From NCBI GenBank assembly GCA_015179045.1, contig WHUZ01000021.1, positions 620,001 through 684,000 of the forward strand: DNA of 64,000 bases, read 5' to 3'. Under the pieces are notes generated by a model, which was not told the origin of the DNA, did no database searches, and saw only the letters and a program-made list of their open reading frames with translations. The stretch's first letter is position 1. Every line of letters starts with the position of its first letter. Made by a program: the position numbers and the translations under genes. The DNA is from Kalaharituber pfeilii. Lineage: Eukaryota; Ascomycota; Pezizomycetes; Pezizales; Pezizaceae. Below, piece by piece: positions 7,571-64,000 of this stretch.

Positions 7571-7632
7571 CCCTGCCATGGCGAACAGCTGCAAGCGGAG
7601 TTACGTGAAAAAAAAAAAAAAAAAAAAAAAAG
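7571..7632 (+). mobile_element. LINE A tail-only micro-insert (unit A)
   Basis: The insert begins CCCTGCCATGGCGAACAGC and ends in A(n). Left target duplication AGTAGGTCTCTCTTG lies at 7556-7570; the right copy at 7633-7645 has lost two bases. The same insert occupies the same place in units B and C, so it predates the duplication. Confidence 0.9.
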
Positions 7633-8729
7633 AGTAGGCCTCTTGATAGCACGAGATGCAGCAAAATGAACTCAATTGGACTGGTGTGTAGGTCTCCCTT
7701 GACAATACAAGATACAGTAGAATAAACTAACTTTAACAAGTATATAGGTATGGCAAGACTCTTCTACGGCACGAGATACAAAAGAATGAGCCAAATTTCA
7801 TAAGTATGGCACACCTCTCTTACCAGCGTGAGATGTAGTAAACGAACTCAATTTGATAGGTATAGTAGTACCTTTCCATAGGAGAGTAGCAAAGTGAGCC
7901 AAATTTGACAGGTATAATAGGACTCTTTCTGCATTGTGAGATATAGTAGAATGAGCACAATTTGATAGTTATTCAATAGCACAAGATACAGCAGAACGAG
8001 AGTCGAATTTGACAGATATGGCAGGTCTATTTGAGCCTGGGAGATGCAGCAGAATAAGCCGAATTTGACAGGGATTGGTAGATCTCTCTTGCTAACATGA
8101 GATATAGCAGGGCGAGCACAATTTGACAGGCATGACAGCTCCTCAATAATGTGAGATGCAGCAGAATGAGCCGAATTCAATAGGAATGGCAGTCTCTCTC
8201 GATTGTGTGAGATGAGGCAGAATGAGCTCAATTTAACAGGGTATGACAGCTTCCTTTCGATGGCATGAGATGAGGCAGAATGAGCTCAAGTTGACAAGTA
8301 TCACCGGACTCTTTCCACAGTGTGAGAACAGCAGAATGAGCCAAATTGGACAGGTACGGCAGGACCCACCTGGCAGCGTGGAACATGGTAAAATGAGCTC
8401 AATTCACAGTTAAGGCTGGCCCCTTTCGATGGTGCAAAGTGAGGCGGTATGGCTTAATTTGACAGATACAACAAGACCTGCTTTGATGGTGCGAGATATG
8501 CCAAAATGCGCTCAATTTACAATTTTACAGGTATGGCAGATTACTCTCGATGGTGTGAGATGGGGCAAAATGAGAATGTGCTGGACTGGTACAGTATGGC
8601 GGGGTGATAAAGGGGCACCTGCTAAAGGTTATAATCATCGGCTACTACAGTACCTACTGACTCCGGCTCCATTCCCCACCCTTTCTGTTTTTTAAATCGC
8701 AAGCACTCTATAGATAGCGATAGCTATGT

Positions 8730-8996
8730 CTACTCTTCATCATCACCCTCAGCCTTCAATTCTTCCACTTTCTTATATACTCTTGCCATCATTCCAGCTG
8801 TACTAATTATATCCTTTTGTAATTTCTTAATCACCTTATACCAGGGCGGCAAGCGATTAATGATATAAAAAAAATAAAAAAAAAAATAAAAAATCACCTT
8901 ATACCTGTTAATATCCTCACTTGCATAGCATTTATACGTGGGTCTATAGGGCGGATAATAAAGCTGGGTACACCTAAAAGGGCATATGCTGGACAT
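8730..8996 (-). CDS. Short conserved open frame in unit A, function unknown
   Basis: The 88-codon frame begins MSSICPFRCTQL and ends with an acidic, lysine-rich tail (ARVYKKVEELKAEGDDEE). Without the 63 bp added by the LINE B tail insert and its duplicated target, it would be 67 codons. The insert is a multiple of three and adds 21 codons without a stop. The partner copy in unit B has a ~10 bp loss that shifts the frame. I do not recognise a family; it may be the C-terminus of a transposon protein. Confidence that it is translated is low. Confidence 0.3.
   Translation of the reverse strand: MSSICPFRCTQLYYPPYRPTYKCYASEDINRYKVIFYFFFYFFYIINRLPPWYKVIKKLQKDIISTAGMMARVYKKVEELKAEGDDEE
8842..8891 (+). 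mobile_element. LINE B tail-only micro-insert, unit A only
   Basis: The insert starts CAGGGCGGCAAGCGATTAAT, which is more truncated than its relatives, and ends in an A-rich run. A perfect 13 bp target duplication, AATCACCTTATAC, lies at 8829-8841 and 8892-8904. Unit B lacks the insert, so it arrived after the tandem duplication. Confidence 0.92.
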
Positions 8997-9104
8997 CTGA
9001 GCAATATCATTGTGGATAGATATTAACCGGAATTTAGGTAGAGTTTATGGGCTGTAACGAGGGTTTCGCTATCCATAAGTTCTACAAAACCTTCTGACGC
9101 TACA

Positions 9105-9321
9105 TTTGGTACTAGAGCTCCCTAGATGCAGGAGTGGGATTACGTGATATTATAAATAACAATGAGAATATACTGATAAGAATAAATGCAGAGAAACGAG
9201 ATTGTACGGTCATGGAACTGGTAAAGAGTGTACAGTCACTTGACGCCGACTTTACGGGTCCCTTATCCACTACCGCTACACCTACACTCACCCTCGCGGT
9301 CGCGAGGTGGCCACATGCTAG
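9105..9321 (+). pseudogene. Conserved open frame at the end of unit A, cut at the duplication junction
   Basis: An open frame reads LRDIINNNENILIRINAEKR followed by DCTVMELVKSVQSL and TATPTLTLAVARWPHAS, then enters the head of unit B and stops. The unit B copy (11965-12207) carries the same protein with two or three changes and goes on for 17 more residues. The peptide looks like part of a transposon gag-type or helical protein, but I do not recognise it. Confidence 0.35.
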
Positions 9322-12152
9322 TATCAACGTACTGAGTGAAATGTTCACATACTCCTGAACCTCAACATACCCCTGAACGTTCGTCATAAGGCACATATTA
9401 ATGTGGAATATGCCAAACGCCCGACAATACCTATATCAAGAGTTTCCATCACATTTCGTATGGAATCAACCTTCACGGAAATGGACACCACGACAATGAG
9501 GAGTTGCAATTGGCCGTATCTATCACTGCAATCCCTTTATGTGAAATGTTCACATTCTCCTGAACCTCAACATACTCGGCATAAGATACAGAAGAATGAG
9601 CCAAATTTTATAGGTATGGTATATCTCTCTCACTATCAGGAGATGAAGCATAACGAGTTCAATTTGAGAGGTACAGCAGCAGCTTTCCATAGCACAATAG
9701 TAACAAAGTGAGTCAAATTTAACAGGTATAAGAGTACAATTTGACTGGTATGGCAGGTCCATTTTACCTCGCGAGATGCAGCAAAATGAGCTGAATTTGA
9801 TAGGCACTTTGACAGGCACGACAGCTCCTCAATGGTGTGAGGTGCAGCAGAACGAGTCAAATTTGACAGGTATGGTAGGTCCATTTCACCCCGCGAGATG
9901 CAGCAAAATGAACCGAATTTGACAGGCACTTTGACAGGCGCGACAACTCCTCAATTTAACAGGCACGACAGCTCCTCAATTTAACAGGCATGATAGCTCC
10001 TCAATTTAACAGGCACGACAGCTCCTCAATGGTGCGAGATGCAGCAGAACGAGTCAAATGTGATAGGTATGGTAGGTCTATTTCACCTCACGAGATGCAG
10101 CAAAATGAGCCGAATTTGACAGGCACTTTGGCAGGCATGATAGCTCCTTAATGGTGTGAGATGCAGCAGAATGAGCTGAATTTAATAGGTATAACAGTCT
10201 CCCTCAATGGCGCAAGATGAGGATGGATGTGGTCAAGTTGACAGATATGACCTTGACAGGCAAAAGTGAGGCAGAATAAGCTCAATTTAACAGGTATGAC
10301 AGCTTTCTCTCAATGGCGCGAGATGTGGCCGAATGAGCTCAAGTTGACAAGTATTACAGGACTCTTTCCATAGCGTAAGAGCAGCAGAAGAGCTGAATTT
10401 GACAGGTATAGTAGGTCTCTCTCTCTTCCATGGCGAACAGCTGCAAGCGGAGTTAGGTGAAATCAAAAAAAAAAAAAAAAAAAAGAAAAGAGTAGGTCTC
10501 TCTTGATAGCACGAGATGCAGCAAAATGAACTCAATTGGACCGGTGTGTAGGTCTCCCTTGACAATACAAGATACAGTAGAATAAACTAACTTTAACAAG
10601 TATATAGGTATGGCAAGACTCTTCTACGGCACGAGATACAAAAGAATGAGCCAAATTTCATAAGTATGGCACACCTCTCTTACCAGCATGAGATGTAGTA
10701 AAACGAACTCAATTTGATAGGTATAGTAGCACCTTTCCACAGGAGAGTAGCAGAGTGAGCCAAATTTGACAGGTATAATAGGACTCTTTCCGCATTATGA
10801 GATATAGCAGAATGAGCACAATTTGATAGTTATTCGATAGCACAAGATGCAGCAGAACGAGAGTCAAATTTGACAGGTATGGCAGGTCTATTTCAGCCTA
10901 GGAGATGCAGCAGAATAAGCCGAATTTGACAGGGATTGGTAGATCTTTCTTGCCAACTTGAGATACAGCAAGGCGAGCACAATTTGACAGGCATGACAGC
11001 TCCTCAATAATGTGAGATGCAGTAGAATGAGCCGAATTCAATAGGAATGGCAGTCTCTCTCGATGATGTGAGATGAGGCAGAATGAGCTCAATTTAACAG
11101 GGTATGACAGCTTCCTTTCGATGGCATGAGATGAGGCAGAATGAGCTCAAGTTGTCAAGTATCACCGGACTCTTTCCACAATGTGATAACAGCAGAATGA
11201 GCCAAATTTGACAGGTACGGCAGGACCCACCTGGCAGCGTGGAACATGGTAAAATAAGCTCAATTCACAGTTAAGGCTGGCCCCTTTCGATGGTGCAAAG
11301 TGAGGCGGTATGGCTTGATTTGACAGATACAACAAGACCTGCTTTGATGGTACGAGATATGCCAAAATGCGCTCAATTTACAATTTTACAGGTATGGCAG
11401 ATTACTCTCGATGGTGTGAGATGGAGCAAAATAAGAATGTGCTAGACTGGTACAGCATGGCGGGGTGATAAAGTGGCACCTGCCAAAGGTTACAATCATC
11501 GGCTACTACAGTACCTACTGACTCCGGCTCCATTCCCCACCCTTTACTGTTTTTTTAAATCGCAAGCACTCTATAGATAGTGATAGCTATGTCTACTCTT
11601 CATCATCACCCTCAGCCTTCAATTCTTCCACTTTCTTATATCCTCTTGCCATCATTCCAGCTGTATTAGTTATATCTTTTTAATTACCTTACACCTGTTA
11701 ATATTCTCACTTGCATAGCATTTATACGTGGGTCTAGAAGGCGGATAAGGAAGCTGGGTACACCTAAAAGGGCATATGCTGGACATCTGAGCAATATCAT
11801 TGTGGGTAGATATTAACCGGAATTTTGGTAGAGTTTATGGGCTGTAACGAGGGTTTTGCTATCCATAGGTTCTACAATTATTAGCATTATACTCCACAAA
11901 ATATATAAAATTAACCTTCTGAAGCTACATTTGGTACTAGAGCTCCCTGGATGCAGGAGTAGGATTGCGTGATATTATAAATAACAATGATAATATACTG
12001 ATAAGAATAAATGCAGAGAAACGAGATTGTACGGTCATGGAACTGGTAAAGAGTGTACAGTCACTTGATGCTGACTTTATGGGTCCCTTATCCACTACCG
12101 CTACACCTACACTCACCCTCGCGGTCGCGAGGTGGCCACATGCTAGTGATCC
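9322..12152. repeat. Large tandem duplication, unit B
   Basis: This unit follows the same order as unit A, with the LINE A tail at the same site. Differences: it lacks the LINE B tail; it has extra copies of a ~25 bp sub-repeat (AGGCACGACAGCTCCTCAAT) near 9955-10030; and it has 36 bp near 11877-11913 absent from unit A. After 12147 the sequence runs on into CCTGTACTAGTACAAGCACA, where unit A is joined to unit B instead. Confidence 0.92.
10425..10490 (+). mobile_element. LINE A tail-only micro-insert (unit B)
   Basis: This is the orthologue of the 7571 and 62931 inserts. The right target copy AGTAGGTCTCTCTTG is intact at 10491-10505. The left copy near 10410-10424 has a CT expansion. Confidence 0.88.
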
Positions 12153-12207
12153 TGTACTAGTACAAGCACAGGAGGCTAGAGGGAGGATAGATTCATTGGG
12201 GAGGTAA
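11965..12207 (+). CDS. Conserved open frame in unit B, function unknown
   Basis: This 80-codon frame is the fuller version of the one cut off at 9321. It shares IINNN(D/E)NILIRINAEKR and LTLAVARWPHAS and then adds DPVLVQAQEARGRIDSLGR before the stop. Preservation of the frame across the duplicates suggests former coding. No family is recognised, and it is probably a fragment of a larger transposon gene. Confidence 0.35.
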   Translation: MRDIINNNDNILIRINAEKRDCTVMELVKSVQSLDADFMGPLSTTATPTLTLAVARWPHASDPVLVQAQEARGRIDSLGR

Positions 12208-25308: not shown

Positions 25309-25364
25309 TTTTTTTTTTTTTTTTTCACGTGACCCCGCATGCGGCTGTTCGCCATGGCAGGGCA
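25309..25364 (-). mobile_element. LINE A tail-only micro-insert
   Basis: On the minus strand it starts TGCCCTGCCATGGCGAACAG and ends GGGGTCACGTGA plus A(n). Target duplication GACCTGTATA lies at 25298-25307 and 25365-25374. The insert is 56 bp in total. Confidence 0.93.
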
Positions 25365-25804: not shown

Positions 25805-25866
25805 TTTTTTTTTTTTTTTTTTTTTATGTCAATACTCGCATACCGCCCTATGGGCTATGGCGAGGT
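25805..25866 (-). mobile_element. LINE B tail-only micro-insert
   Basis: On the minus strand it starts ACCTCGCCATAGCCCATAGG and ends GCGAGTATTGACATA(n). Perfect 11 bp target duplication AAGGGGAGGCC at 25794-25804 and 25867-25877. Confidence 0.93.
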
Positions 25867-31491: not shown

Positions 31492-33340
31492 ATTAACCTA
31501 GGTAAACAAAAGCTACCTTTAATGGATCGGTAGCAAGAAAAAGAGTTCTATTATGTGAATGTTTCCATGTGGGATCGGCTAGCGTAGATGTAAAATACCA
31601 CAATAGCGTTCGTTAATATAGCAAAGGATGTTGGGAAGGGTCGCTATGCCCTTCACTAAACGGGGAGTCGTGATATGATTTGACTCATGGCAACTCAATT
31701 GCACAAGTACCCAAAGGACGTGTGCTGCAGAGCGCATTATCAGGCTTAAGGGAAGATTTTTCCTCACGCCCTCAAATTGATACTACACAAGATATCCAAA
31801 ATTGGTACTTTTATTGGAAGATCAAATCCCCTGATTTAGTCTGGAAAATAAGAGCCTCTAAATACTTGCACTGAAAGTATAATAATTATCAGTGAAATAA
31901 CAAGACAAAAGTCCCTTTTGGTAGACCATGGATTTTCTCTGGTATTCAAAATCCCTGTTTAATCACTGAAAAACGGGGACAGGGCTCAGAATCCCCGTTT
32001 GCTGGCATCATAATCCCCGATCTGTATGTTATAGGGCATCCCTCCAGCACCTTCAATTTGGCCTCTGGTTTCGCTTCGGCTGCATACCCCATCCACGCCC
32101 GATGGGCCTAGCAATGCTGGCGTAAATTTGTCTTCTTTCGCCAGGTGCAGTCCGCTCAGCCGGCTCGCTACTGCCCAGGCTGCCTTCCAAGATTTAGTCT
32201 CTTCCGAATGTGTGTCAAATCTCGGCTCCCAATCTGCCTCCTAGCCCTGCCATTAGGTAGGTTGGGCCCTTGACTCCGAATATGCGTACCTCCGTCTTCT
32301 GTGGATCTAACAGGAAACTCTTCTGTCTCGCCTCCTCCTCTACTGTAATTCACCGCAACACGACGTACACCACGTCCCGACGCACGTTTTACACCAAAAC
32401 TGACCGCGCGCGACAACATATATCTCAATCACCAGAATAGAATTTGGCATGCAGCTTGTGGTTTCGCAGTCTTTCCTGTTAAGAAAATTCTAGGTTTTTC
32501 TGAGGTCCTCCGACTTTTTCCCAAAAGTGGACTGTAAGGTCTGATGATAGTCTCAGCTCTACAATACTAATAGTAGTGTTGCATGTATATGTGCCGGGCC
32601 ATTCGTAACAGTGATTGGGAGAGGTCTTTAGTAACGCCGTTTTTTTCAAACAGTGGATGTGTGAACTGGCGAGTGTGTGTGTGTGTGAGTCTGAGAGGGT
32701 GAATTGTAGGTAGAATGAGAAAATTCATATTCTGAGTAGCCCGGGCCAGTCACGAACCAGCGTTCCATTGAGTAGTCCGGGCTAGTGGTGACTGGCCTGG
32801 GCCAGTCGTGACTGGAACGTTTGTTACGAATGGCCCCGGTACACATATATACAACTAGGTCGAAATACAACGAATGATGCCAAAATTGTACACCACCTGG
32901 AAAGCTATTCCCATAGCAAACGCATTCACCATCAAGCATGTATATTCCTCCCAGTGCACAATCTTCGTTCCGCAAATATTACATAATGATAATTGCAAAT
33001 CCACTGCATTTTCAGCCCAATACCAAGCTCACAATGAATAATACCATCCCATATTTCGTGTTAATGAGCAACATCGGCCCACAGCGCCACTCGTACTCCA
33101 AATGTTATCCTCCCATCAGAGACAAGAAAATAAGTCCATATTACATGAGCTAGTCATGAAATAATATATACAAGATGAAATAAGCAAGAATGCCGTTGTC
33201 CTTGTTCAAGCAAAAGCGATGAGGAAAAGACAAGGAAGAACGAATGAAAGAGGGATATAAAGAATTAAAAAATCTTCTGAAAGAATAGTCACATGTGACA
33301 TATTGTACCCAAATAGTACTCCCCAAACCTTGAGAGTTGA
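31492..33340. other. No supported gene
   Basis: Unique, AT-rich sequence. Around 32735-32820 the word GGGCCAGTCRTGACTGG occurs in several variants and forms short inverted repeats. A minus-strand frame at 32168-32428 (86 codons, arginine-rich) shows no known motif. Confidence 0.35.
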
Positions 33341-33377
33341 CCCTGCCATGGCGAACAGCTACAAGCGGGGTTACGTG

Positions 33378-33420
<43 letters not shown>
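33341..33420 (+). mobile_element. LINE A tail-only micro-insert
   Basis: It starts CCCTGCCATGGCGAACAGC, ends GGGGTTACGTGAAATT, then a ~38 base A run. Only TTGAGA (33330-33335 and 33421-33426) is shared by the flanks, so the target duplication is weak. It lies just downstream of the MARVEL-like gene, within about 70 bp of its stop. Confidence 0.85.
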
Positions 33421-41917: not shown

Positions 41918-41969
41918 TTTTTTATATATATCATTACTCGCTTGCCGCCCTGTGGGCTATGGCGGGGTA
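41918..41969 (-). mobile_element. LINE B tail-only micro-insert
   Basis: On the minus strand it starts ACCCCGCCATAGCCCACAGG and ends GCGAGTAATGATATATA plus A(n). Perfect 12 bp target duplication ATGTCTCAGCAT at 41906-41917 and 41970-41981. Total insert 52 bp. Confidence 0.95.
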
Positions 41970-43225
41970 ATGTCTCAGCATGTTATATTCTAACCCGGGC
42001 TGACGTTACTCAGCTATCGGCTGCAACACCGCCCTAGGAGATGACATGGACATTAGGTACGTCAGGCAAGGAGTTACATAAAATTCTCTCCAGAACAGCG
42101 TTCATCGTGGGTCCCAATTCTACTTCAAATTAATTTCATTCCCGTGTGTACAGTGTATACGTGTATGGAAATGTATTTCTCTGAACTGATCGTACCAAAG
42201 AGACAGAAACACGGCTACGATAAACATTATGCTACAGAGTAAGATGACTAGAATAAATAACACTATCCATTTGCCAGATTAGTACAGTATGTATGTTACC
42301 TTAACAGACCTCTAGCAGCTTCAGCAGTTCACATAACTTCATCAATAGCTATCCCCATAGCTCCAGTGTGGCTATAGCTATCTCCATAATTCCAGCCATG
42401 ACTGTTTTCTTCGAGGTGTGGCTGCTCCTCCAGAAACTTTGGCCTGTGCCCAAGGCACTGTCTTACTTCTCTGACCATGCCGGTGTTCCCTGTGATACAC
42501 ATCTGTGCCCAACCCATATTTTATTGCCAGACTGTAGCTATCAGTTGATTAGGCCGAATCATCACTAGCAGCTTTACAGGTCAATGTGGGTGGATATCCC
42601 CTTCGAGGGTAGACCATGACAAGAACAGCGTGGCTCGTAGGTCCCAATCCTACTTCAAGTGACGCCGGCATGAGATCAATGTATTTCTCTAAACTGATGA
42701 TAGCGATATCGATACTTACGGAGTTATATTATGTTATTGTTTAATGTCCCCGACGCTGCCTGGCTGTTGCACATTTTCTAGGACTGCGCACAGCTTAGAC
42801 TGCAAGTCTCATTCTGGAAACTAAGGGCTTGGCATTAGACTAATTGTAGTTCCTAGCGTGGTTTGCTGATGACTCAGCCTCTTATTGGATGTTTAGGAGC
42901 CAGACATACTTAGTTCTGTATGACTAGCAAACTGCTCTAGGAGATCATAGTCACATCACATTACCAGACTAGGTGTTCCTAGTACATAGGGCTCGATACA
43001 TACTGTTACATCTCACATTGCCATCTTCTATCGAATTCTTTATTAGAATATATGATTCTGACTGTTTTTCTCAACAACATCCGCTATGCCCGCCCCCTGC
43101 CCTACACTTTCTACACTTTCGGTCCCTTCCTTGAACTCCAGCGCCTTTCAGACCTTCATTCTGCCCCAATCTCTATTTGCGGGGTTTCAATTCTCTCTCA
43201 TTTCGAAACCTTAAGGCAGCTTTGC

Positions 43226-43278
43226 CCTGCCATGGCGAACAGCTCCACGCGGGGTTATGTGATATAAATATATTATAA
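43226..43278 (+). mobile_element. LINE A tail-only micro-insert
   Basis: It starts CCTGCCATGGCGAACAGC and ends GGGGTTATGTGATATAAAT with an A/T-rich tail. Perfect 13 bp target duplication AAGGCAGCTTTGC at 43213-43225 and 43279-43291. Total insert 53 bp. Confidence 0.95.
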
Positions 43279-44715: not shown

Positions 44716-44775
44716 TTTTTTTTTGTTTTTTTTATATCACATGACCCCGCATGCAGCTATTCGCCATGGCAGGGC
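44716..44775 (-). mobile_element. LINE A tail-only micro-insert
   Basis: On the minus strand it starts GCCCTGCCATGGCGAATAGC and ends GGGGTCATGTGATATAAA. Perfect 10 bp target duplication AATGTAGTAG at 44706-44715 and 44776-44785. Confidence 0.95.
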
Positions 44776-45560: not shown

Positions 45561-46016
45561 GACTGAGTATTCCATATTAGGCAGTCCAAATACTTAGCTG
45601 TTCTGTTCACTGGTTTTGTATGCAACTTCGTGTTATAGAGTTTTTGTATATATATGGGCTCTGGAAGCCCCGTTCGTGATTGATCATTAGAATCGAATAC
45701 ACACATCTCTGAGCCTATTCCTCTGTACTCCTTTTCACAGGTTATGAGCCCGGACTGTGCAATATAGTCCACCGCATTTTTTTTTTTTTTTTTTTTTTTT
45801 TTCACGTGACCCCGCTTGTAGCTGTTCGCCATGGCAGGGCCCCTGGGTCTAGACCCTCAAAGCCCGGAGGCAGGCTTATCTACCTAAATCTTCCACCGCC
45901 ATCTCTACAAACGAAAACATCAACCCCTCCCCGCCCCACTTCCCCGAGGCACTTAAAAATAGCTACGTCTTTCTTCCCCCGCCACCTACTAACAAACGGA
46001 AATTCGCCCCCTCCCC

Positions 46017-49000
46017 CTACACCTTCAGCGAACCAAAAAACTCTCCCAGCGCATTCACCATCTCCCCATTCTCCTGTTCCACCATCCATTTCTTGTCGTC
46101 AATATCCTCCCACCTTCCCCATCCTTCCAGGTACTCCACCTCCTCACACCCGAACGCCAGGTGGTCCGCCGTTTGCCTTTTCCCGCATCCACATACACTC
46201 CCCTCCATCACTTTCCCGATCCTTATTTCCCACTCCTTCCCCATCCCCTTTCCAGTTCTCAACCTCGTGAACGCCGTTGCAGCCCCCCTTCTCCACTCCA
46301 TCACTGCGCCTCCCCCGTACCCCCTTTCTTTTCTTTCCGCCACGCGCAGTCGCTTCCATTTCTGCCGCAGCCCTCCTTCTGTCACCACCGACCTCCCTAT
46401 CCTGTCCGCCGCCTTCTTTGCTTCGACGTCCGCCGCCTCGTTGCCGGCGACACCAATGTGTGCCTTGACCCACATCAGCTTGACGTCCCCCCCCTTCTCC
46501 TTCTTTCTGCGATTTCATCTACCACCCTCCTTAGGTCTCCGGTTCGTGCTTTCCCTAGTCTCCCCGCCTTCTTCACTGCCGCGATTGCTGCCTGTGAGTC
46601 AGTTAGGACGACTACGTTCGCCGGTGCCGGTACTGCTCTTTCCAACCCCCTTCTCATCCCCTTCACCTCCCCGTCCCACACCGTCGCCCCCGTCCCCATC
46701 TCTTCTCCTCCCCCGCCGTCCCACTTCCAAAAACCCCCTCCTACTCTCCCCTTCTCATTCATGCTGCCGTCCGTATAGACGGCCCCTGCCCCCTGTGTTG
46801 CCCAGAAGATCGCTGACTCCCACTCCTCCGCCCCCCCCCCTTTGCGACCTTCGCTATTGGCCTCTTCTATCTCCACTTTCGCACATCTCCCTCCCCATGA
46901 CACTTCGTCTACCCCCTCCGGCATTACGAAGCTCACTGTGCTCTGTACCCTCCCCGCTACCGACTCGAAACCATCCTTCTTCTGCGTCACCCACCCCGCG
47001 CTCCAATCCTTCCAGTCCCGACCCCGCTCCTCCACGTCCCCCTCCCCCTGAAGTCCGCGGTCCAGATGTCTCCACAGCCCTCCGGGTCCCCCATACTCCT
47101 CGCTACAAACCGCGCCTGTGCAGCGTCTAATGCTGTCTCCGCACTCTCCACTCCGGCGATCCAGTTGACTTTCTGCATCGCTGCTCCGTGGACTGCTCCC
47201 GTGGCCTTTTTCAATACCTGGTACTGAATCTTTTCCATTTCCCTCCTCCACTCTTTCTGCCCCCTCCATCCTATCTCCGAACCCCACATCATCACCGCTC
47301 TGATCATCCCCGTGTACAACTGTCGCCAGCTCCGTGGGCTCATTCCCCACTGCCCCGCGCCCACCCCCATCATGGCTCCCGTGAGCTTTCTCGCCTTCTC
47401 TATCCTCGCCTTCCAATGGAAGTCGAAGTCTAGAGTCGAATCAAAGATTACTCCCAGCCACTTCACTCTCTCCACCTCCTTCCTCTTTCTCTTCCCCTTG
47501 CCGAAGACAATGTCTTCGTGCTTTGTTTTCTCTAACGGCACCCCCCATTTCTCTGCTATCTCCTTCGTTATCCTTCCCAGCTTCGCCCTCAATCTCTCTT
47601 GGTCCACCTCCCCCTCCCAGTCCCACGCCGTCACATTGATGTCGTCAACGTACGACGGAACCTCGCACTCCACCTCCGGGCACTCCCTCCTCAGTGTCTC
47701 CTCCAAATCCTCCAGCATCGGTGCCAACCATATCAAGAAAATGACTGGTGACAGCGGCGATCCCTGCGGTACCCCCACGTTTGCTCTTCCTTCCCCTCTG
47801 ACTACCCCATCCCACTCCACCGTAAACCTTCTCTCCCTAAAGAACCCTTTCAGCCACCCCTCCCACCTACCCGCTCTCTCGTCTCTTTTTATCCTGCCCA
47901 AAACCTCCTCCCCTTTCACGTTATTGAAACCCCCTCTCACATCATCGAGACTCCATACTGACCCCCCTTTTCTTGCCAGACACCTCTGCGTTTTGGTGAC
48001 GGCCCTCATCATTGCTTCTGCGGCGTTCCTCCCTTTCCTGCCTCCGAACTGGTGTCGATGGAAAAGTCGGTCCGCCCTCTGCAGCTCGTTTGCCACCACT
48101 TTTTCTCCCAACTTCGCCACGCAGTTAATCAAATTTATTGGTCTCCAACTCCTCACCTGGGACTTGTCCTTCCCCGGCTTCGGAATCATGACCACTTTGC
48201 TTAACTGCCACTCTCTTGGTGTCCTCCCCGCCGCCATCTCCTCCGCCATCTGTGTCATTAGCCCCTTTCCTAACGGGGTCTTCATCACCAGCTTCAAGAA
48301 CTTGTATGATACTCCATCGGGTCCCGGTGCCGACACATTGCTCGTCCCCCTTAGGGCGTCCTCCAGCATTCCCACGATCTTCTCTACCCCATATCCCGGT
48401 CCCTCCCCACTCTCCTCCCCTTCGTCCTCCCTACCCTGTCTCTCTTCCCACTGGAAATTCCTCAGGACAAGTGCTTCGCACTTGTCTTGGTCCGTCCTCA
48501 GCTCTTCCCCCTCCTCTCCCTTCAACTTCCCCATAGTCGCTTTCAACCTCCACGGGTCTTTAGCTACCCTAGCAACCACCCACGGATCCTTCTCCCCCAT
48601 CTCCTCCGCGAAGGCCCTCCAGCACTCCTCCTTCTCCTTTTTTATGTTCGCCTTGAGGGTCCTCTTCGCCTGCTTCCATTTCTCATACCTCTCTGGGTCC
48701 ATCCCCTTTGCTCCTTGACCCACCCCTCCTCTCCCCGCTGCCGTCACCTCCTTTCGAAGGCTCGTTAGCTTCTTTGACCACCATTTCTTACTCCTCCTGC
48801 ATACCCTCACTCCCCGACTGTGCCTTTCCTTGAGGTCCAAAAGTTTCTCGTACGGGTTTCCCCCCGCAGTCCCTCCACCCACTCCCCTTTCTTTTCCCCG
48901 TCCCACTCCTTCATGTCTTCCACCAAATCCTCCACCTCTTCAAAATTCACCCTCCTTCTTTTCTCTCCTCCTCCCCTCTCTGTGTTCTCCCACTCCGTGC

Positions 49001-53857: not shown

Positions 53858-56800
53858 ATGCAAGACTGGAATACGCACAGCCCGATGTGGAGTTTAAAAG
53901 GAACTGGGGAGAACGGAAAGGGTAGGAGACTGAGGGAGAGAATGGAGGAGGCTGGCTTTGCCTTGAAGGGAGAAAGAGTAGGAACGTGGAGGAGAGAAGT
54001 GGAAGGCAGGGTGCGAGAATCGAGAATAGACTTGGTGTGGGTAAGGGGGGTAGAGGGGGTGCAGGTAGAGCTGTGGGAAGGGGGCTCAGACCACTCAGGT
54101 CTGGTAGTGGAGTCACTGGAGTGGGAGGAGGGGGAGAAGGGAGGGAGAGAAATGGAAGAGAGGGTGAGAATTGATTGGGAAAGGGTGGAGGAAGAGGTCG
54201 AGGGGTGGGGCGGAGAATGGGGAGACGAAGAGAAGAAGAAGTGGCTAGAAAGGGTAGGAAAGGCCCGAGAGGGGAGCGGGTATGAGAGACTCAAATGATG
54301 GAAGGAGTCTCTAGAGAAGAAAGTAAGGGTAAGAGGGAGGAGTAAAAGGTGGTAGACGGAAGAGATTGAAGAGATGAGGAAGGAAGTCAATAGGCTAGCG
54401 CGAGGAGGGGTGGGAGCTAGGGCGAGGTTAAGAGAGAAAGACTCTGAAAGAGAGAGTGAGGGGGTGGAAGGTGGCAGTACAGAAGCTGAAGTGGAAGATC
54501 CGAGAGGAGAAGAAGAGGTGCTGGAGGGACTTCATGGAAGAGGAGGGGCACAGTGACCCATGGAGAGTGGTGAGGGTAGCAAAGGACCCTTTCAGAGGTA
54601 AAGAGAGAATGGGGTTGCTAGTAGATGAGGAGGGAAGAGATTTAGAAGAGAACGAGGAGAAGATGAGGGCATTGATGAGAAGGAATTTCGAGTGGAGGGA
54701 GAGCGGAGAAGACGAGGAGAAAGAGGTAGGAGGGGACGGAGGGGTAGGAGAGGTAGATAAGAGGGAGAGAGAAAGGGTAGAGAAGGAAGTGAGGGCCACG
54801 TTACAGAGCACCAAGAATAACTCGGCTCTAGGACCGGACGGAATCGGGTACCGGCTGATCAAGGCGGCCTTGAGGACACCTATAGGTGATGAGCTAGTGA
54901 GGGAGATCACTGAGAATTGGATTCGAAATGAAACTCCGAAGGAGTGGAAGGAGATGCGAGTGGTCATGATACCCAAGCCGGGATCCAGGGAAGGATATCA
55001 AGGCCACGAAAGCATGGAGGCCCATCAATCTGATCAACTGCATTGGGAAAATTGGGGAGAAGGTGATGGCTAACAGGCTGCAGAAAGAAGACCGAGTTTT
55101 CCATAGGCTTCAGTTGGGAACTCGGAAAGGAAGGAATGCCACTCAAGCAATGGCAAGGGCAGTGACAAAGGTACAGAGGTAGGGGAGGAAGAGCAGCATG
55201 AGTGACAGCGGATGTCAAGGGTGGCTTTAACATCGTGAGGAGGGAGGTAGTTCTGAGGAGGATAGAAGAGAGAGGGAGTGAGGAGATTAAGAAGAAGAGG
55301 GGGTGGTTGGAGAAATTCATGGGTGGGAGGGAGTTCGGGGTGTGGTGGGATGATGAGGAGAGGGGGTGAGGCAGGTCAAACGTGGGGGTGCCGAAAGGGT
55401 CCCCACTCTCACCAGTCATTTTCCTAATCTTCATGGCGCCTACAATCGAGAAGATGGAGGAGAGGGTAAGGAGGGTAGCCGCTGGAGCGGAGGCAGAGGC
55501 GCTGTTATATGTGGACGATTTAGCTGCAATGAACCTGGATTGGAGCCTGCCTCCGGGCTTTGAGGGTCTAGACCCAGGGGCCCTGCCATGGCGAACAGCT
55601 ACAAGCGGGGTCACGTGAAAAAAAAAAAAAAAAAAAACCTGGATTGGCACAACTATTGGGATATGAGACGATTGAGGGAGAAGGTGAAGGTGATGGCAGA
55701 GGTGGCAGAAGAAGATCAGGTCCCACTGGAGGAGTCGAAGTAGGAGATGATAACGTTTGGGGTGGGGAAGAGGTAGAAGAAGTAAGGGGAGAAGATAAAG
55801 TGGCTAGGGGTCATTTTTGATGAGAATCTGACTTTTAGCCCACACTAGCGAAACTGAGTAGGAAGGGCGAGGAGTTTGGCAGGGACGCTGGCGGGGCTGG
55901 GGAATAGGGACTGAGGGATATCACCATGGAGCTGGCGGCAGGTATATACAGGGATGGTGAGAGCGGTGGCAATGTGGGGGAGTGAGATTGGGTGGAGAGG
56001 CCAGAAGGAGTGGAAGAAGGAGATGGAGCGAGTACAGCTGCAAGTTTTGAAGAGAGCAGCTGAAGGGGGGAGAGGTGCTGGGGTAGAGGGGGTGAATGCG
56101 ATATGCGGAGTGGAAGACGTGGAGATGGTACTGGATGGCGCACAAGCGAGAGCGATCATCCGGGAGGTGGAGGTGCTGTCAGAGCTAGCGGAGCTTTACA
56201 CGGGCGACTTCAGAGTAGGGAGTGAGAAGAGAGAGAAGGAGGCGAGAAACTGGAGAGACTGGGGGATGCAGTGGGCACTGGCCGAGAAAGATGGGTATGA
56301 AGCAGTACTGGACTACTGGCAAGGTCAGTGGGCGAGGTTTTCGGAGGAGGGGGAGGAGATCTCGTGGAGAGGGGGGTGTGAGAAGGTGGAGGTGGAGAAC
56401 GCGGTGAGGCTAGGAAGAAAGAAAGGAGGAAGAGAGGAGTCGGTTGAGGAAGCCGGAAGAGGGAGGGCGGTCCTCTTCTCAGATGGCAGCAAAATCGAGG
56501 ATAGCAAGGTGGGGGCGGGTGTATGGGGGAGATCGGCAGTGGTTGCGGAGGTGGTGGGAAGAACAGTAACAGTGTTTGACGGGTAGGTGAGGGGAGTGAG
56601 AAGAGCCTTGGAGAGTGTGCCGGAGGAGGTACCGGTCCTGATCTGTCTGGATTCAGAAGCTGCCATCATGGTGATTAAGAAAGCAGGCAGAGAGGGGAAG
56701 GGGAAAATGGAGGATGTGAGGAGGGTAGTGGATGCAGTGGCAAGGAGGAAGAGGAAGGGGGGTAATGCGAAACTGATGTGAGTTAAGGCTCACATTAGAA

Positions 56801-57193
56801 TTGCAGGGAATGAGAAGGCAGATGAGTAGGCGAAGAAGGGGACGATGGAGAAGGAGAGGGAGGTGGCCACCAGGAGTGGGGTGCGCCAAAGGATAAAGGC
56901 GTGGAGGAAAGAGAAGAGAGAGAGAGATAGAGGGGTTCGGAAGAGGAAAGGTCATGGAGTGGAGTAGGGTGGTGACATCAAACTTCACTGCATTGCGACT
57001 GGAGCGAGGAAGGTGTACTATAGTATGGTTGAAGAAGCTGGAGGTGGCGGAATCGGATAGGTGCAGGTGTGAGGAGGTGCAAATGGGGGAGCATCTCGCT
57101 TTCCGATGCAGAAGCCAGAAGAACCGTCCAGAAGGTTTTGAGAGGTGTAGCGACATGAGAAAGAGCAACGGCGCGATGGGGCCATGTACGTAG
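53858..57193 (+). pseudogene. LINE A2 ORF2 relic: endonuclease end, RT, RNase H
   Basis: Blocks in shifting frames: endonuclease C-part (53858-54298); RT from 54456 with LGPDGIGYRLIKAALRTP and MRVVMIPKPG; motif B GVPKGSPLSPVIFLIF at 55385; motif C LLYVDDLAA at about 55505. RNase H has VLFSDGSKIEDSKVGAGVWG (56470), ICLDSEAAIMVIKKAGREG (56642) and VKAHIRIAGNEKADE (about 56785). A knuckle-like end CRCEEVQMGEHLAFRC lies near 57062. Stops and frameshifts are scattered along the whole length. Confidence 0.85.
55544..55635 (+). mobile_element. LINE A tail-only insert, longer form, nested in LINE A2 RT
   Basis: It starts AGCCTGCCTCCGGGCTTTGA, includes the palindrome GGGTCTAGACCC and the standard tail, and ends in A(n). 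Perfect 12 bp target duplication AACCTGGATTGG at 55532-55543 and 55636-55647. The insert interrupts the RT just after motif C. Confidence 0.96.
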
Positions 57194-57273
57194 AAATTTA
57201 GTTTAGCCTGTCTCCGGGCTATGAGAGCTTGCCCAGGGACCCTGCCATGGCCACGTGCTACAAGCGGGGTTAT

Positions 57274-57307
<34 letters not shown>

Positions 57308-58107: not shown

Positions 58108-58112
58108 CAACC

Positions 58113-58349
58113 TGTTACGGAGGTGGTAAACGCAGAGAGTTACCGTCCGCCAGGTCAAAAAGACACTTGACTAGCGATACTCGCTAGTCCTCTGCGTGGC
58201 TCATATAGTACTCATTATGCGACTGCGGCGCCTTTCCGGCTGTCGCATGTCGCTTACGTCGCATATGCGCATTTCGTATGCGCTTGCATTTTTCGCTTTT
58301 CACGCGCTCCACCGGCCGCCCACACTACGGTCGCGGTGAACCCGTAACA
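58113..58349. mobile_element. Solo LTR, 237 bp, with 5 bp target duplication
   Basis: It starts TGTTACGGAGG and ends CCCGTAACA, i.e. inverted TGTTACGG/CCGTAACA-type termini of an LTR. CAACC flanks it on both sides (58108-58112 and 58350-58354), the 5 bp duplication of LTR retrotransposons. No internal region is attached, so it arose by LTR recombination. It contains a short palindrome (CTAGCGATACTCGCTAG) and many CGCATATGCG-like words. Which superfamily it came from is unknown. Confidence 0.82.
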
Positions 58350-58368
58350 CAACCATCTCGATAAGCTT

Positions 58369-58777: not shown

Positions 58778-59341
58778 TACATTAGTATTTGTATTTTTTT
58801 AAAGCTAAAAGGTGCTATAGATCAGCATATACTTACTCTCAGGAACCTAACTCAAGTTATCCGATGTCAAAAAGCAGTTTTGCTGTAGAGATTCTCTGTG
58901 TGCGGCGGTGCTGAATTGTGAAAGAGAAATTGCAAAGGGGGGTCAGAACGCAGGGGCCAGGTATTTTTAGTGTATTAGTCAGCAAGCAAGCCAGTGTCAC
59001 ACCTGGTCCCTTCTTGATGAACACCACCATAGGAAGGTCAGTATGCATGTGCGCATATTAGTAGACCATGTGCAGTTATTAGTCTATATAACTTACTTTG
59101 ACACATACTTAGTAGACAACCGCTGGTTATTGGGCCCAAGTGTATAAGCGTTGCCTAGTGGTGATCAGCCACATCTATTATAGTACTGAGTTACGAGAGA
59201 ATGCCCGCTCGCTACGCTCGCAATGGGGGCAGAGCGTGCGGCGGGAGCTGAGGCAGAGCTTGCGACACTCGCGACCGGGATTAGGGGCTTTGGTGCTGTC
59301 ACGGAGTAGTAAATATACTTTTTCAGCCGCTTGCACACATA

Positions 59342-59411
59342 CAGTCTAACCTTGCTATACCGGACAAAAAGTGCCAGATTTTTACTCGTCCGGTATAGCA
59401 AGGTTAGACTG
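59342..59411. mobile_element. 70 bp pogo/Fot1-like hairpin MITE with TA target duplication
   Basis: CAGTCTAACCTTGCTATACC plus GGAC is followed by a ~22 base loop and the exact reverse complement ending GGTTAGACTG. TA lies on both sides (59340-59341 and 59412-59413). The CAGT... ends and TA target duplication are typical of the pogo/Fot1 branch of Tc1-mariner. The element consists of two TIRs back to back, the smallest possible MITE of this type. Confidence 0.85.
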
Positions 59412-59869
59412 TACTTACTGAGAGACCCCCGAGCGAAGCGAGTGGGGTCTATACAACTGCTGGGGAGGGTGACGCACCTAGGGAAGTGACGCGCCTAGAG
59501 GGGTGATGCGCCCTGGGAGGTGACATCAAGAGGAGAAAAACTGATAGAGGTGTACAAACACCGAAGGATAGCACTGTATTATCAAGACCCGCACCTTTAA
59601 AATTGATCTCTACCCTTAGATGTCACATTCCTATCTGGAAACTCACATCCCTCCGCTGCAGTCATATTTACAACAACTATATCTGTCAACTTTATCTAAT
59701 CAACTTCTCTAACTAAAATCTCACCACTACGCTCACTATCTCTTCTAAACTTCCACTTTCCAGTTGCCCACCCATTAACTACAACTTGCTGAATCACTTG
59801 CTGAATTGCCCGCTGAACTGGCCTGCTGAATTGCTTGTTGAATTGGCTGCTGAATCTCCTGAAATTCTG

Positions 59870-59995
59870 AATCCCCTGCTGAATCCCCCACTAAAGTACC
59901 TGCTGAATCCCCCGCTAAAGTGCCTGCTGAATCTCCCACTAAAGTGCTTGCTGAATCCCCTACCGAATCACTTGCCGAATCGCTTGTAGGACTAC
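59870..59995. repeat. 24 bp tandem repeat, both strands open
   Basis: Three or more copies of CTGAATCCCCCACTAAAGTA plus CCTG follow a region of 15-18 bp TTGCTGAATTGCC-like units (59785-59870). On the minus strand it encodes GDSAGTLV repeats within a 101-codon frame; on the plus strand LLNPPLKY repeats. It is a minisatellite; coding is doubtful. Confidence 0.8.
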
Positions 59996-60083
59996 ATGCT
60001 GAACTTGTTGTTGAACTTTCTAACTCATCTGCCAAGCTGCTAGTTAGCTCACATAATGAATTGCTTGCTGAACCCTTCACTGG

Positions 60084-60800
60084 TTTTTTTTTTTTTTTTT
60101 ATTTCATTACTCGCGTGCCGCCTAATAGGCTATGGCGAGATCTTATATAGACTAAAATTCCTTACAAACTGATAAAGAAAAACAAAGAAGAAATAGGAAT
60201 TAAAAGAAACCTGAAGAATTCAGTCCTGCCCTGCCCATTCCAGTATTTCCGCGATATTGACTCCCTTTCCCGGCTGCGTCAAGCACTCCGCCCCTTCTTT
60301 TGTCTTTCGCTTCCATGCCTGGCAATCCCTTGCTATGTGTGTCAAGTTCTCCAGGGCCTTTCCGCATCATCGGCACTCCGGTGAATCCGCCTTGCCTATG
60401 CCGTATCTCCATTCTTTGAGTCCCTTGTTTCCGAGGATGCCTGCTAAAACGGAGATCTTCTTGCGGTTATCTATCTGTTGTAGCGGTCGATATGTCAGTT
60501 GTAGGCGATTTCTTTCTTTGGCTCTGAGGGTTTTGGCTTCTTGGCGGATCCCCGCCTCTGTGGCTATCTCTTCTTCGCATTGTAGGGCGGTGCCTACCTT
60601 CGCCGCCCTGTCTGCCTTCTCGTTCCCTCTTACTCCCTTGTGTGCCTTTACCCATAGCACCGCTAGGTCGTGGTCCCCTCTGGCTATCCTCTTCTCCCAC
60701 TGTTCCCTAACCTCCTGGGAGGTACCTTCCACGTTTGGGTCCCCGTTGGCTATTTTCTGAAGTCTCGATATTGCCGTACGGGAGTCGGTGACTTCATCAC
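60084..60800 (-). mobile_element. LINE B 3' fragment: RNase H, 3' UTR and family B tail
   Basis: On the minus strand: VTDSRTAISRLQKIANGD (RNase H Asp) at about 60800-60745, then VLWVKAHKGVRGNEKADRAA (His, Asp), a KRKTKEG/CRCG-containing end after one frameshift near 60367, a ~130 bp A/T-rich 3' UTR, and the tail TCTCGCCATAGCCTATTAGG...GAGTAATGAAATAAA with poly(A) at 60084. It is 5'-truncated near 60800. It confirms that the family B tail is the genuine 3' end of a LINE. Confidence 0.85.
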
Positions 60801-61245
60801 GACATCGTATAGTGCATTCTCACTTACCTATTATGCTATCCACCATAGCATTCAAGTTTCTCAAGTAGCAAGTTTATTAAAGTACAACCCGATAACCTAT
60901 AATTTTTTCAGTATTAATATAGTAGTGCCAATGGAATAAAAGTGACTCTTACCTTTGCATTGTCAAATTGCGGAGTTGTAAAGGGGTGAAGGTGAGGAGG
61001 GAGTTTTAAGATAGATTTATTCTTAATTCAGCAGAATATCATAGAAGTCAAGCTATCTTTATTTTGATTAGTTTGATGGGACAACTTACTCAAGTTGACA
61101 GAGATTTGCACAGTTTTATTAAAAGTGCTGATCAGAAGCGACTTGTAGAGGTCATAGCTACAAAGTATAGAAATCTATTGGCCCGATAAGAGAGGAGGCC
61201 CAAGTTATTCTCGAAAACTTTTATCTCAGTACTATATAGATAGAC
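60801..61245. other. No gene seen
   Basis: AT-rich unique DNA between the LINE B fragment and the third large repeat copy. No motif found. Confidence 0.35.
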
Positions 61246-62340
61246 ATCCCTCTTGGCGTCCACCTAACCCTTGAAAAAAAAAAAGACCTTGGCGTCTACC
61301 TAACCCCTGAAAAAAAAAAGACCTGTGAAATGTTCACATACTCCTAAACCTCAACATACTCCTGAACCTTCGTCATAAGGCACATATTAATGTGGAATAT
61401 GCCAAACGCCCGACAATACCTATATCAAGAGTTTCCATCACATTTCGTATGAAATCAACCTTCACGGAAATGGACACCATGACAATGAGGAGTTGCAATT
61501 GGCCGTATCTATCACTGCAATACCTTTATGTGAAAAGTTCACATTCTTCTGAACCTCAACATTCTCGGCATAAGATACAGAAGAATGAGCCAAATTTTAT
61601 AGGTATAGTATATCTCTCTTACCATCAGGAGATGAAGTATAACGAGTTCAATTTGACAGGTATAGCAGCAGGTTTCCATAGCACAATAGTAACAGAGTGA
61701 GCCGAATTTAACAAGTATAAGAGTACAATTTGGCTGGTATGGTAGGTCTATTTCATCTCGCGAGATATAGCAAAATGAGCTGAATTTGACAGGCACTTTG
61801 ACAGGCATGACAGCTCCTCAATTTGACAGGTACGACAGCTCCTCAATAGTGCGACATGCAGCAGAACGAGTCAAATGTGATAGGTATGGTAGGTCTATTT
61901 TACCTCGCAAGATGCAGCAAAATGAGCCGAATTTTACAGGCACTTTACAGGTATGATAGCTCCTCAATGGTGTGAGATGCAGCAGAATGAGTCAAATTTG
62001 ACAGGTATGGTAGGTCCATTTCACCTTGCGAGATGTAGCAAAATGAGCTGAATTTGATAGGTACTTTGACAGGCACGACAGCTCCTCAATTTGATAAGCA
62101 CGACAGCTCCTTAATGGTGCAAGGTGCAGCAGAACGAGTCAAATGTGATAAGGTATGATAGGTCTATTTCACCTCACGAGATGCAGCAAAATGAGCCGAA
62201 TTTGACAGACACTTTGACAGGCATGACAGCTCCTCAATGGTGTGAGATGCAGCAGAACGAGTCAAATTTGACAGGTATGGTAGGTCCATCTCACCCCGCG
62301 AGATGCAGCAAAATGACCTGAATTTGACAGGAACTTTAAC

Positions 62341-62540
62341 AGGCACGACAGCTCCTCAATTTGGCAGGCACGACAGCTCCTCAATTTAACAGGCACGATA
62401 GCTCCTCAATTTAACAGGCACGACAGCTCCTCAATTTGACAGGCACGATAGCTCCTCAATTCAACAGGCACGACAGCTCCTCAATTTGACAGGCACGACA
62501 GCTCCTCAATTTGGCAGGCACGACAGCTTCTCAATGGTGC
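62341..62540. repeat. 25 bp sub-repeat array in unit C
   Basis: Eight copies of a 25 bp unit, AGGCACGACAGCTCCTCAAT plus TTGRC, in register. Unit B has about four copies at the equivalent place and unit A one, so the array has expanded differently in each large copy. Confidence 0.93.
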
Positions 62541-62930
62541 GAGATGCAGCAGAACGAGTCAAATGTGATAGGTATGGTAGGTCTATTTCACCTCACGAGA
62601 TGCAGCAAAATGAGCCGAATTTGACAGACACTTTGATAGGTATGATAGCTTCTCAATGATGTGAGATGCAGTACAATGAGCTGAATTTAATAGGTATAAC
62701 AGTCTCCCTCAATGGCGCAAGATGAGGATGGATGTGGTCAAGTTGACCGATATGACCTTGACAGGCAAAACTGAGGCAGAATAAGCTCAATTTAACAGGT
62801 ATGACAGCTTTCTCTCAATGGTGCGAGATGTGGCCGAATGAGCTCAAGTTGACAAGTATTACAGGACTCTTTCCATAGCGTAACAGCAGTAGAATGAGCT
62901 GAATTTGACAGGTACAGTAGGTCTCTCTTG

Positions 62931-62994
62931 CCCTGTCATGGCGAACAGCAGCAAGCGGAGTTACGTGAAATTAAAAAAAAAAAAAAAAAAAAAG
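62931..62994 (+). mobile_element. LINE A tail-only micro-insert (unit C)
   Basis: CCCTGTCATGGCGAACAGC ... GGAGTTACGTGAAATT plus A(n). The 15 bp target duplication AGTAGGTCTCTCTTG is perfect here (62916-62930 and 62995-63009) and identifies the original insertion site shared by units A and B. Confidence 0.96.
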
Positions 62995-64000
62995 AGTAGG
63001 TCTCTCTTGATAGCACGAGATGCAGCAAAATGAACTCAATTGGACCGGTATGTACGTCTCCCTTGACAATACAAGATATAGTAGAATAAACTAACTTTAA
63101 CAAGTATATAGGTATGGCAAGACTCTTCTACGGCACGAGATACAAAAGAATGAGCCAAATTTCATAAGTATGGCACACCTCTCTTATCAGCATGAGGTGT
63201 AGTAAAACGAACTCAATTTGATAGGTATAGTAGCACCTTTCCACAGGAGAGTAGCAGAGTGAGCCAAATTTAACAGGTATAATAGGACTCTTTCCGCATT
63301 ATGAGATATAGCAGAATGAGCGCAATTTGATAGTTATTCGATAGCACAAGATGCAGCAGAACGAGTCAAATTTGACAGGTATGGCAGGTCTATTTCAGCC
63401 TGAGAGATGCAGCAGAATAAGCCGAATTTGACAGGGATTGGTAGATCTCTCTTGCCAACATGAGATACAGCAGGGCGAGCAGAATTTGACAGGCATGATA
63501 GCTCCTTATGAGATGCAGCAGAATGAGCCGAATTCAATAGGAATGGCAGTCTCTCTTGATGGTATAAGATGAGGCAGAATGAGCTCAATTTAACAGGGTA
63601 TGACAGCTTCCTTTCGATGGCATGAGATGAGGCTGAATGAGCTCAAGTTGACAAGTATCACCAGACCTTTTCCACAGTGTGAGAACAGCAGAATGAGACA
63701 AATTTGACAGGTATGGCAGGACCCACCTGGCAGCGTGGAACATGGTGAAATGAGCTCAATTCACAGTTAAGGCTGGCCCCTTTCTATGGTGCAAAGTGAG
63801 GCGGTATGGCTCAATTTGACAGATACAATAAGACCTCCTTGATAGTGCAAGATATGCTAAAATGAGCTCAATTTACAATTTTACAAGTATGGCAGATTAT
63901 TTTCGATGGTGCAAGATGGGGCAAAATGAGAATGCGCTGGACCGGTACGGCATGGTGCTAGAAGCCAGATAAGGAAGCTAGATACACATGAAAGGGCATA

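What the first reader, a model, noticed from the sequence alone, without database searches (positions are those of the whole stretch)
7571..63009. LINE A micro-retroposons: ~40 nt tail-only inserts with perfect target duplications
Seen directly: at 7571, 10425, 25309, 33341, 43226, 44716, 55544 and 62931 the same GCCCTGCCATGG...GGGGTYACGTGA segment plus poly(A) stands alone. Most are flanked by 10-15 bp direct duplications (for example AATGTAGTAG, AAGGCAGCTTTGC, AACCTGGATTGG, AGTAGGTCTCTCTTG). The same segment is the exact 3' end of LINE A at 2516, 45777 and 57309. Most inserts carry only ~38-42 nt of element sequence, far shorter than known SINEs and lacking an internal pol III promoter. They look like the smallest discrete units moved by target-primed reverse transcription in this genome. 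Six independent events in 64 kb (the 7571, 10425 and 62931 copies share one) imply a very high rate.
Basis: partly seen in the sequence, partly recalled or inferred. Interest (0 to 1): 0.88.

Follow-up and report, generated by a model that had tools for sequence, protein, structure and literature searches.

The report
Hairpin-sized retroposons shed by fungal LINEs
This likely fungal genome holds an estimated thousand or so 39-base inserts that copy only the last, predicted-hairpin part of a mobile element (a LINE), about half of those tested showing duplicated target DNA on both sides; they are likely made by reverse transcription of short RNA pieces that end at the hairpin, which would make them among the smallest jumping units known.

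Summary
Seven of the eight listed inserts start within 3 nt of one nucleotide of a LINE 3' tail; the eighth is a longer unit. Of 119 copies chosen by their 3' end only, 56 have an exact target duplication (TSD) of 11 nt or more: 40 are 36-45 nt long, none 46-73, three 74-82, twelve longer, one an artefact. TSDs at the fixed start occur in 44 of 84 and 11 of 24 testable copies, against 0.2 and 0.4 after permutation. A nearly intact tail occurs 1,577 times; about 1,060 are estimated solo. Of 74 copies retaining an upstream hairpin, 32 start 0-5 nt from its 5' base with a TSD: a 76-nt unit. A sequence-unrelated LINE tail does the same in 14 of 43 copies; five inserts there carry only 16-22 nt. 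Starts lie at the 5' edges of predicted hairpins, often after untemplated pyrimidines. This favours short RNA templates ending there over enzyme pausing, but that step is inferred. Discrete head-less, SINE-like units are supported; "smallest in this genome" is not. No description was found in the searches made.

The parts
7570..7608 (+). 39-nt tail-A unit; A-run follows; one event with 10426 and 62930
   Evidence: TSD decayed
10426..10460 (+). tail-A unit with mutated 5' end
   Evidence: 13-nt TSD AGTAGGTCTCTCT
25325..25363 (-). 39-nt tail-A unit, one extra T at the 5' junction; A-run 25309-25324
   Evidence: 11-nt TSD TTATACAGGTC
33340..33378 (+). 39-nt tail-A unit starting with A
   Evidence: no exact TSD found
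43224..43262 (+). 39-nt tail-A unit; TSD overlaps its first two bases
   Evidence: 13-nt TSD AAGGCAGCTTTGC
44737..44775 (-). 39-nt tail-A unit; A-rich end 44716-44736
   Evidence: 10-nt TSD CTACTACATT
55544..55618 (+). 75-nt insert = 76-nt unit less its first A, inside another LINE copy (54402-57305)
   Evidence: 12-nt TSD AACCTGGATTGG; unit defined
62930..62968 (+). 39-nt tail-A unit
   Evidence: 15-nt TSD AGTAGGTCTCTCTTG
45777..48939 (-). LINE A copy, 3' part: reverse-transcriptase ORF at 46987-48939, 3' tail 45802-45875, A-run 45777-45801
   Evidence: RVT_1 E 1.9e-24
1478..2516 (+). related LINE 3' part with the same tail (2453-2491)
   Evidence: about 87-88% identity to LINE A
54402..57305 (+). 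diverged LINE with the same tail (57239-57277), interrupted by the 55544 insert
   Evidence: about 61-64% identity to LINE A
8843..8863 (+). tail-C insert of only 21 nt, followed by an A-rich end
   Evidence: 14-nt TSD AATCACCTTATACC
25829..25866 (-). tail-C unit of about 38 nt (starts ACCTCGCC)
   Evidence: 11-nt TSD GGCCTCCCCTT
41931..41968 (-). tail-C unit of about 38 nt (starts ACCCCGCC)
   Evidence: 12-nt TSD ATGCTGAGACAT
60104..60140 (-). tail C at the 3' end of a LINE fragment (LINE protein match further upstream on the same strand)

Best explanation
The inserts are discrete 39-nt (and 76-nt) copies of the 3'-terminal, predicted-hairpin region of LINEs, many of them flanked by target-site duplications, and they are likely made by target-primed reverse transcription, with the LINE's own enzyme, of short RNA fragments whose 5' ends would lie at the base of a hairpin. 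Shown from sequence: fixed 5' starts, target duplications, A-rich 3' ends, the same YY|R preference at the start of the duplications of both units, and the same pattern in an unrelated LINE tail. Inferred: (1) LINE RNA is cut or trimmed from its 5' side down to the base of the last hairpin (39-nt unit) or of a hairpin 37 nt further up (76-nt unit), perhaps because the stem or a bound LINE protein protects the rest; (2) the fragment keeps the recognition hairpin and poly(A), so the LINE enzyme copies it to its end, adds one to a few untemplated purines to the cDNA and completes the insertion. The unit would be a SINE reduced to its LINE tail.
For: Peaked lengths with an empty 46-73 bin. TSDs at the fixed start in 44 of 84 and 11 of 24 copies, permuted means 0.2 and 0.4. 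56 of 93 copies with an upstream flank unlike any other copy in the sample, 37 sharing LINE sequence, no scores between. Second fixed start: 32 of 74 within 0-5 nt of AAGCC, no supported start 6-84 nt upstream. Folds place G1 of the 39-nt unit and A1 of the 76-nt unit at the first base of 7-bp stems. Stops at 5' edges of hairpins are where a template would end, not where an enzyme coming from the 3' side first meets structure. Untemplated letters between TSD and unit are pyrimidine in 57 of 61, i.e. purines on the cDNA. Unrelated tail C: 14 of 43 TSDs at its stem base, permuted mean 0.3, with compensatory stem changes. Concatemer in L017/L018 holding a whole 39-nt unit with its own A-run between two other tail pieces.
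Against: No RNA data. The hairpin of tail A is only moderately supported: 6, 16, 1, 87 and 65 of 200 shuffles fold as well for five tails, and the alignment test shows no two-sided changes. In a 128-nt stretch of LINE A the predicted fold lacks this hairpin. Five tail-C inserts of 16-22 nt start inside or after the inner hairpin, so the full stem is not needed for insertion. The 39-nt start lies only about 4 nt 3' of another hairpin, which a pausing model could use. No start at the base of that middle hairpin was seen, which a simple trimming model might predict.
Confidence: 0.6

Rival explanations
1. Premature stop on full-length LINE RNA: the enzyme pauses at RNA structure, or at a protein bound at the hairpin base, at fixed bases, and the short cDNA is integrated.
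For: The 39-nt start lies about 4 nt 3' of the GGGTCTAGACCC (or GGACTTCGGTCC) hairpin in the LINE context. Long LINE RNA is predicted to fold differently. Very short tail-C inserts also occur.
Against: For the 76-nt start the 41 nt upstream have no stable structure by themselves (-3.1 kcal/mol, z 0.36). No supported start was seen at the 3' edge of hairpin AAGCC..GGCTT, where pausing would be expected. Untemplated purine addition fits run-off at a template end (inference).
Confidence: 0.25
2. A self-sustaining short family: 39-nt copies are themselves transcribed (from neighbouring promoters), trimmed and re-inserted, evolving apart from LINEs.
For: The variant TTGGCGAG(C/T)AGCTGCGC was seen in four 39-nt copies (three plus one) and in no LINE-linked copy among the copies tabulated.
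Against: The commonest variants occur in both solo and LINE-linked copies, so LINEs suffice as sources. The genome-wide count of the private variant was asked for eleven times and never answered.
Confidence: 0.1
3. Ordinary random 5' truncation of LINE copies.
For: Longer copies do have scattered starts, 98-1474 nt.
Against: Two sharp starts and an empty 46-73 bin in samples chosen without regard to the 5' end.
Confidence: 0.03

Closest known systems
SINE/LINE pairs of the stringent type (UnaL2, ZfL2-1, ZfL2-2; PMC4176376, abstract and introduction read)
   Same: A LINE enzyme acts on RNAs that share its 3' tail stem-loop; pairs are reported also for the Tad1 clade
   Different: SINEs of such pairs have a body besides the tail; here the insert is the tail alone
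Fungal SINEs, e.g. AfuSINE2 of Aspergillus fumigatus (PMC5063351, abstract start and passages read)
   Same: Fungal, 4-14 bp TSDs, LINE/Tad1-like 3' end in AfuSINE2-1a
   Different: tRNA-related 5' part and pol III promoter sequences; 140 bp in the table row seen; far longer than 39 nt
3'-truncated snRNA pseudogenes and tailless retropseudogenes (PMC4476161 section 8; PMC3747384 passages)
   Same: Very short retroposed RNAs with TSDs whose truncation points cluster by RNA secondary structure
   Different: There the 3' end is truncated by internal initiation and the source is a cellular RNA; here the 5' end is fixed and the 3' end is the LINE tail with an A-run
5'-truncated LINE copies (general knowledge)
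   Same: Same LINE 3' end, A-run and TSD
   Different: Their starts vary; here starts are fixed at two places in tail A

Membership tests
SINE | pol III-transcribed head (tRNA, 5S or 7SL related) | tested here: not met
   Only 39 or 76 nt of LINE tail between the TSDs; no Rfam or tRNA match in the window. Transcription itself not tested
SINE | non-coding, dispersed, TSD-flanked, A-rich or LINE-like 3' end | tested here: met
SINE | own lineage evolving apart from the partner LINE | tested here: inconclusive
   Most common variants shared with LINE copies, one variant seen only solo; genome-wide count not answered
Tail of a stringent LINE | 3' tail conserved between partners or between diverged LINEs | tested here: met
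   Tail kept between LINEs of about 61-64% body identity
Tail of a stringent LINE | 3' tail forms a stem-loop | tested here: inconclusive
   Tail A: predicted, pairing kept, two-sided changes only with a structure-aware register. Tail C: compensatory changes
Tail of a stringent LINE | the LINE protein needs the stem-loop for retrotransposition | not testable with these tools
   needs an assay
5'-truncated LINE copy | variable 5' start | tested here: not met
   fixed starts
Processed pseudogene of a cellular RNA | source is a cellular RNA | tested here: not met
   Source sequence is the LINE 3' end; no Rfam match in the window

The most novel reading that the evidence does not exclude
Several LINE lineages of one fungal genome shed free, poly(A)-tailed recognition hairpins of about 40 nt that are retroposed in large numbers: a head-less class of retroposon defined by RNA processing instead of by a promoter, and a 'tail first' step on the way to SINEs.
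Probability: 0.5. Interest if true: 0.85.

Novelty: new variant of a known kind. Interest (0 to 1): 0.72.

Why it matters
What sets the 5' end of LINE copies, how little RNA a LINE enzyme needs in a cell, and how SINEs begin are open questions. A genome with an estimated thousand inserts of a single hairpin region, two fixed start points in one tail and an unrelated second tail doing the same makes them testable: template ends can be read by RNA sequencing and the minimal substrate assayed. Inserts this short would easily be missed by ordinary repeat annotation (inference), so comparable units may be overlooked elsewhere.

Tried and rejected
Rejected: smooth truncation; chance duplications (permutation); a tRNA or Rfam head within the window; splicing as the source of the 5' ends (no AG directly before either start; by inspection only). 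Considered, not decided: a protein roadblock at the hairpin base, and an alternative fold of the long RNA that could hide the hairpin.

Led nowhere: one search used wrong columns for the stem and is void (repeated); one search used a wrong regular expression (repeated); the variant index and the 76-nt label failed and are not used. The literature searches (and 23 for the species) listed no paper on such units; most subscription papers are not in the library, and supplements were not read.

Dropped or doubtful rows: 93 of the 100 places listed were examined (100 of 2,448 are listed); seven were not fetched (one on C1, four on C2, two on C3). In one search, 9 of 93 and 2 of 26 copies had no recognisable 5' arm and were left out. 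In one search, 74 of 75 places were fetched; the 75th is the window's own LINE. In one search, 5 of 61 tail-C copies with short flanks and 13 of 56 without the 5' arm were left out; one of the 14 positives (L050) lies among nested tails and may be spurious. In one search, the 18-nt entry (L093) is an internal repeat of neighbouring tails; the 98-nt entry (L034) also has an 11-nt duplication at the usual start and is probably a 39-nt unit; two or three of the longer entries are expected by chance (my estimate from match length). Upstream sequence was only about 450 nt for most of the first sample, so longer inserts are under-counted there.
Full report
OBSERVATION. The eight inserts are present. 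Seven begin at the same tail position or within 3 nt of it; the eighth (55544) is 75 nt and belongs to a second class. Exact TSDs were found for six of the eight copies, a decayed one for 7570, none for 33340. Three copies (7570, 10426, 62930) share flanks and are one event.

GENOME AND PARENT. The window lies in a 78.0-Mb assembly of 360 contigs. The parent ending at 45777 (-) encodes a reverse transcriptase (RVT_1, E 1.9e-24) and, in another frame, a sub-threshold RNase H match (E 0.0072) that is 89% identical over 189 residues to an RNase H protein of Kalaharituber pfeilii; the RT frame is 95% identical to that protein over 203 residues. The source is therefore likely that desert truffle or a near relative (inference; the assembly is unnamed, and a search for this protein in it did not complete). 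Of five homologues scanned, two have endonuclease, reverse transcriptase and RNase H domains, two the last two and one RNase H alone; this resembles the Tad/I-like layout (recalled).

IS IT DISCRETE? I selected copies by the last 14 tail bases only, so the 5' end was free to vary: 93 of the 100 listed places, on C1-C2, and 26 places spread over the genome by a downstream GATCG filter. In the first set 56 of 93 have an upstream flank unlike that of any other copy in the set and 37 share sequence; scores are at most 15 against at least 30, shuffled maximum 16. TSDs of score 9 or more end within -2 to +6 nt of the fixed start in 44 of 84 (permuted mean 0.2, maximum 1) and 11 of 24 (0.4, maximum 1). 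Without assuming a start, 56 of 119 have an exact TSD of at least 11: 40 inserts of 36-45 nt, none of 46-73, three of 74-82, twelve of 98-1474 and one artefact of 18.

NUMBER. A nearly intact tail (30 places, CCCTGCCWTGGCGAACAGCTNCANGCGGGG) occurs 1,577 times; 157 are preceded by AGGGG and 229 by AGGGA, the LINE context. Among 49 such copies in loci L009-L124, 37 lacked that context and 33 of these had no LINE sequence in the 32 nt upstream, which gives about 1,060 solo copies (estimate: 1,191 x 33/37). More mutated copies are not counted. In the first 100 places, 28 of 32 on C1 lie in its first 0.55 of 2.99 Mb.

A SECOND FIXED START. The LINE A hairpin further up occurs 75 times; 74 were fetched. 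Thirty-two start 0-5 nt from AAGCC with a TSD score of 9 or more; one more has a score of 8; seven have TSDs 85-177 nt further up; 34 show none of 9 or more in the 300 nt held. No supported start lies 6-84 nt upstream.

STRUCTURE. The 39-nt unit is predicted to be a 7-bp stem GCCCUGC/GCGGGGU around an inner hairpin, its first base being the first paired base; the 76-nt unit begins at the first base of the 7-bp hairpin AAGCCUG/CGGGCUU. Support is uneven: 6, 16, 1, 87 and 65 of 200 shuffles fold at least as well for five tails. On the MAFFT alignment pairing is kept (94.4% of cells against 38-47% when slid) with no two-sided changes; with a structure-aware register that I chose, the inner stem pairs better than shuffled arms (3 of 5000). 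The outer 3' arm was nearly fixed by the selection, so it could hardly vary. In a 128-nt stretch of LINE A 3' RNA the predicted fold is different: upstream UUUUCGUUUGUAG pairs with the tail.

AN INDEPENDENT REPLICATE. Comparing the flanks of fetched loci uncovered a second tail of unrelated sequence, (C/A)TCGCCATAGCCC...GGGCGGCATGCGA(G/T)TAATGA plus A-run: 61 copies in the 331 kb held, four in the window. Its outer stem shows CTCGC/GCGAG 26, ATCGC/GCGAT 12, GTCGC/GCGAC 1, CCCGC/GCGAG 3 and the unpaired type TTCGC/GCGAT 1; inner GCCC/GGGC 27, GCCT/AGGC 8, mismatched GCCC/AGGC 2. In 14 of 43 testable copies a TSD ends within -2 to +4 nt of the stem base, against a permuted mean of 0.3, maximum 1; one of them is doubtful (L050). 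Five further copies (window 8843, L013, L025, L036, L048) start inside or after the inner hairpin and carry only 16-22 nt up to the final TGA between exact TSDs of 10-14 nt. Ten of 42 upstream stretches match LINE proteins at E 1e-4 or better, seven of them on the same strand, including the window copy at 60119, so this is a LINE tail too.

MECHANISM. Shown: TSDs, A-rich ends, fixed starts at 5' edges of predicted hairpins, YY|R at the start of the TSDs of both units (43 and 22 inserts), and untemplated letters that are pyrimidine in 57 of 61. A reverse transcriptase moving 3' to 5' meets a hairpin at its 3' edge; starts at 5' edges mean that the hairpin was copied whole and the template ended there, or that something upstream blocked the enzyme. 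For the 76-nt start the 41 nt upstream have no stable structure by themselves. I therefore favour fragments of LINE RNA trimmed or cut at hairpin bases (inference, 0.6). A concatemer in L017/L018, in which a complete 39-nt unit with its own A-run sits between two other tail pieces, looks like template jumping between such RNAs; the two loci are 95% identical duplicates, so it is one case. Against it: no RNA data, the modest stem evidence, the different long-range fold, and the tail-C inserts that lack the 5' arm.

COMPARISON. By anatomy this is a SINE without a head. SINE membership fails on the pol III head and is unsettled for independent evolution; it works like the tail of a stringent SINE/LINE pair (PMC4176376, abstract and introduction read). 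Structure-linked truncation is known at the other end, for 3'-truncated snRNA pseudogenes (PMC4476161, section 8 read). I found no description of head-less units.

LIMITS. One genome; no RNA; whole-genome counts only for exact patterns of tail A; tail C counted only in the window and in loci chosen for tail A, so its density is not a genome average.

Noticed in passing
   Followed up: partly
L017, L018 (C1 near 178 kb and 214 kb): Concatemer of three tail pieces, the middle one a complete 39-nt unit with its own A-run; the two loci are duplicates of one event.
   Followed up: partly
G000 C1 and C2: Tail copies are concentrated at one end of the large contigs: 28 of 32 on C1 in its first 0.55 of 2.99 Mb, suggesting repeat-rich and repeat-poor compartments.
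   Followed up: no
L009, L013, L117: Another LINE family (TCCCTGCCATAGGCTGGTAGCCTGTATGCGGGG tail) also leaves short inserts of about 30-43 nt.
   Followed up: partly
window 45777-48776 (-) and loci such as L155: In LINE A, TTTTCGTTTGTAG some 100 nt upstream is complementary to the tail CTACAAGCGGGG; a long-range fold could hide the recognition hairpin in long RNA.
   Followed up: no
L153: A 76-nt unit sits inside a tail-C copy (TSD AGGGCGGCAAGCG), so the two families insert into each other.
   Followed up: no
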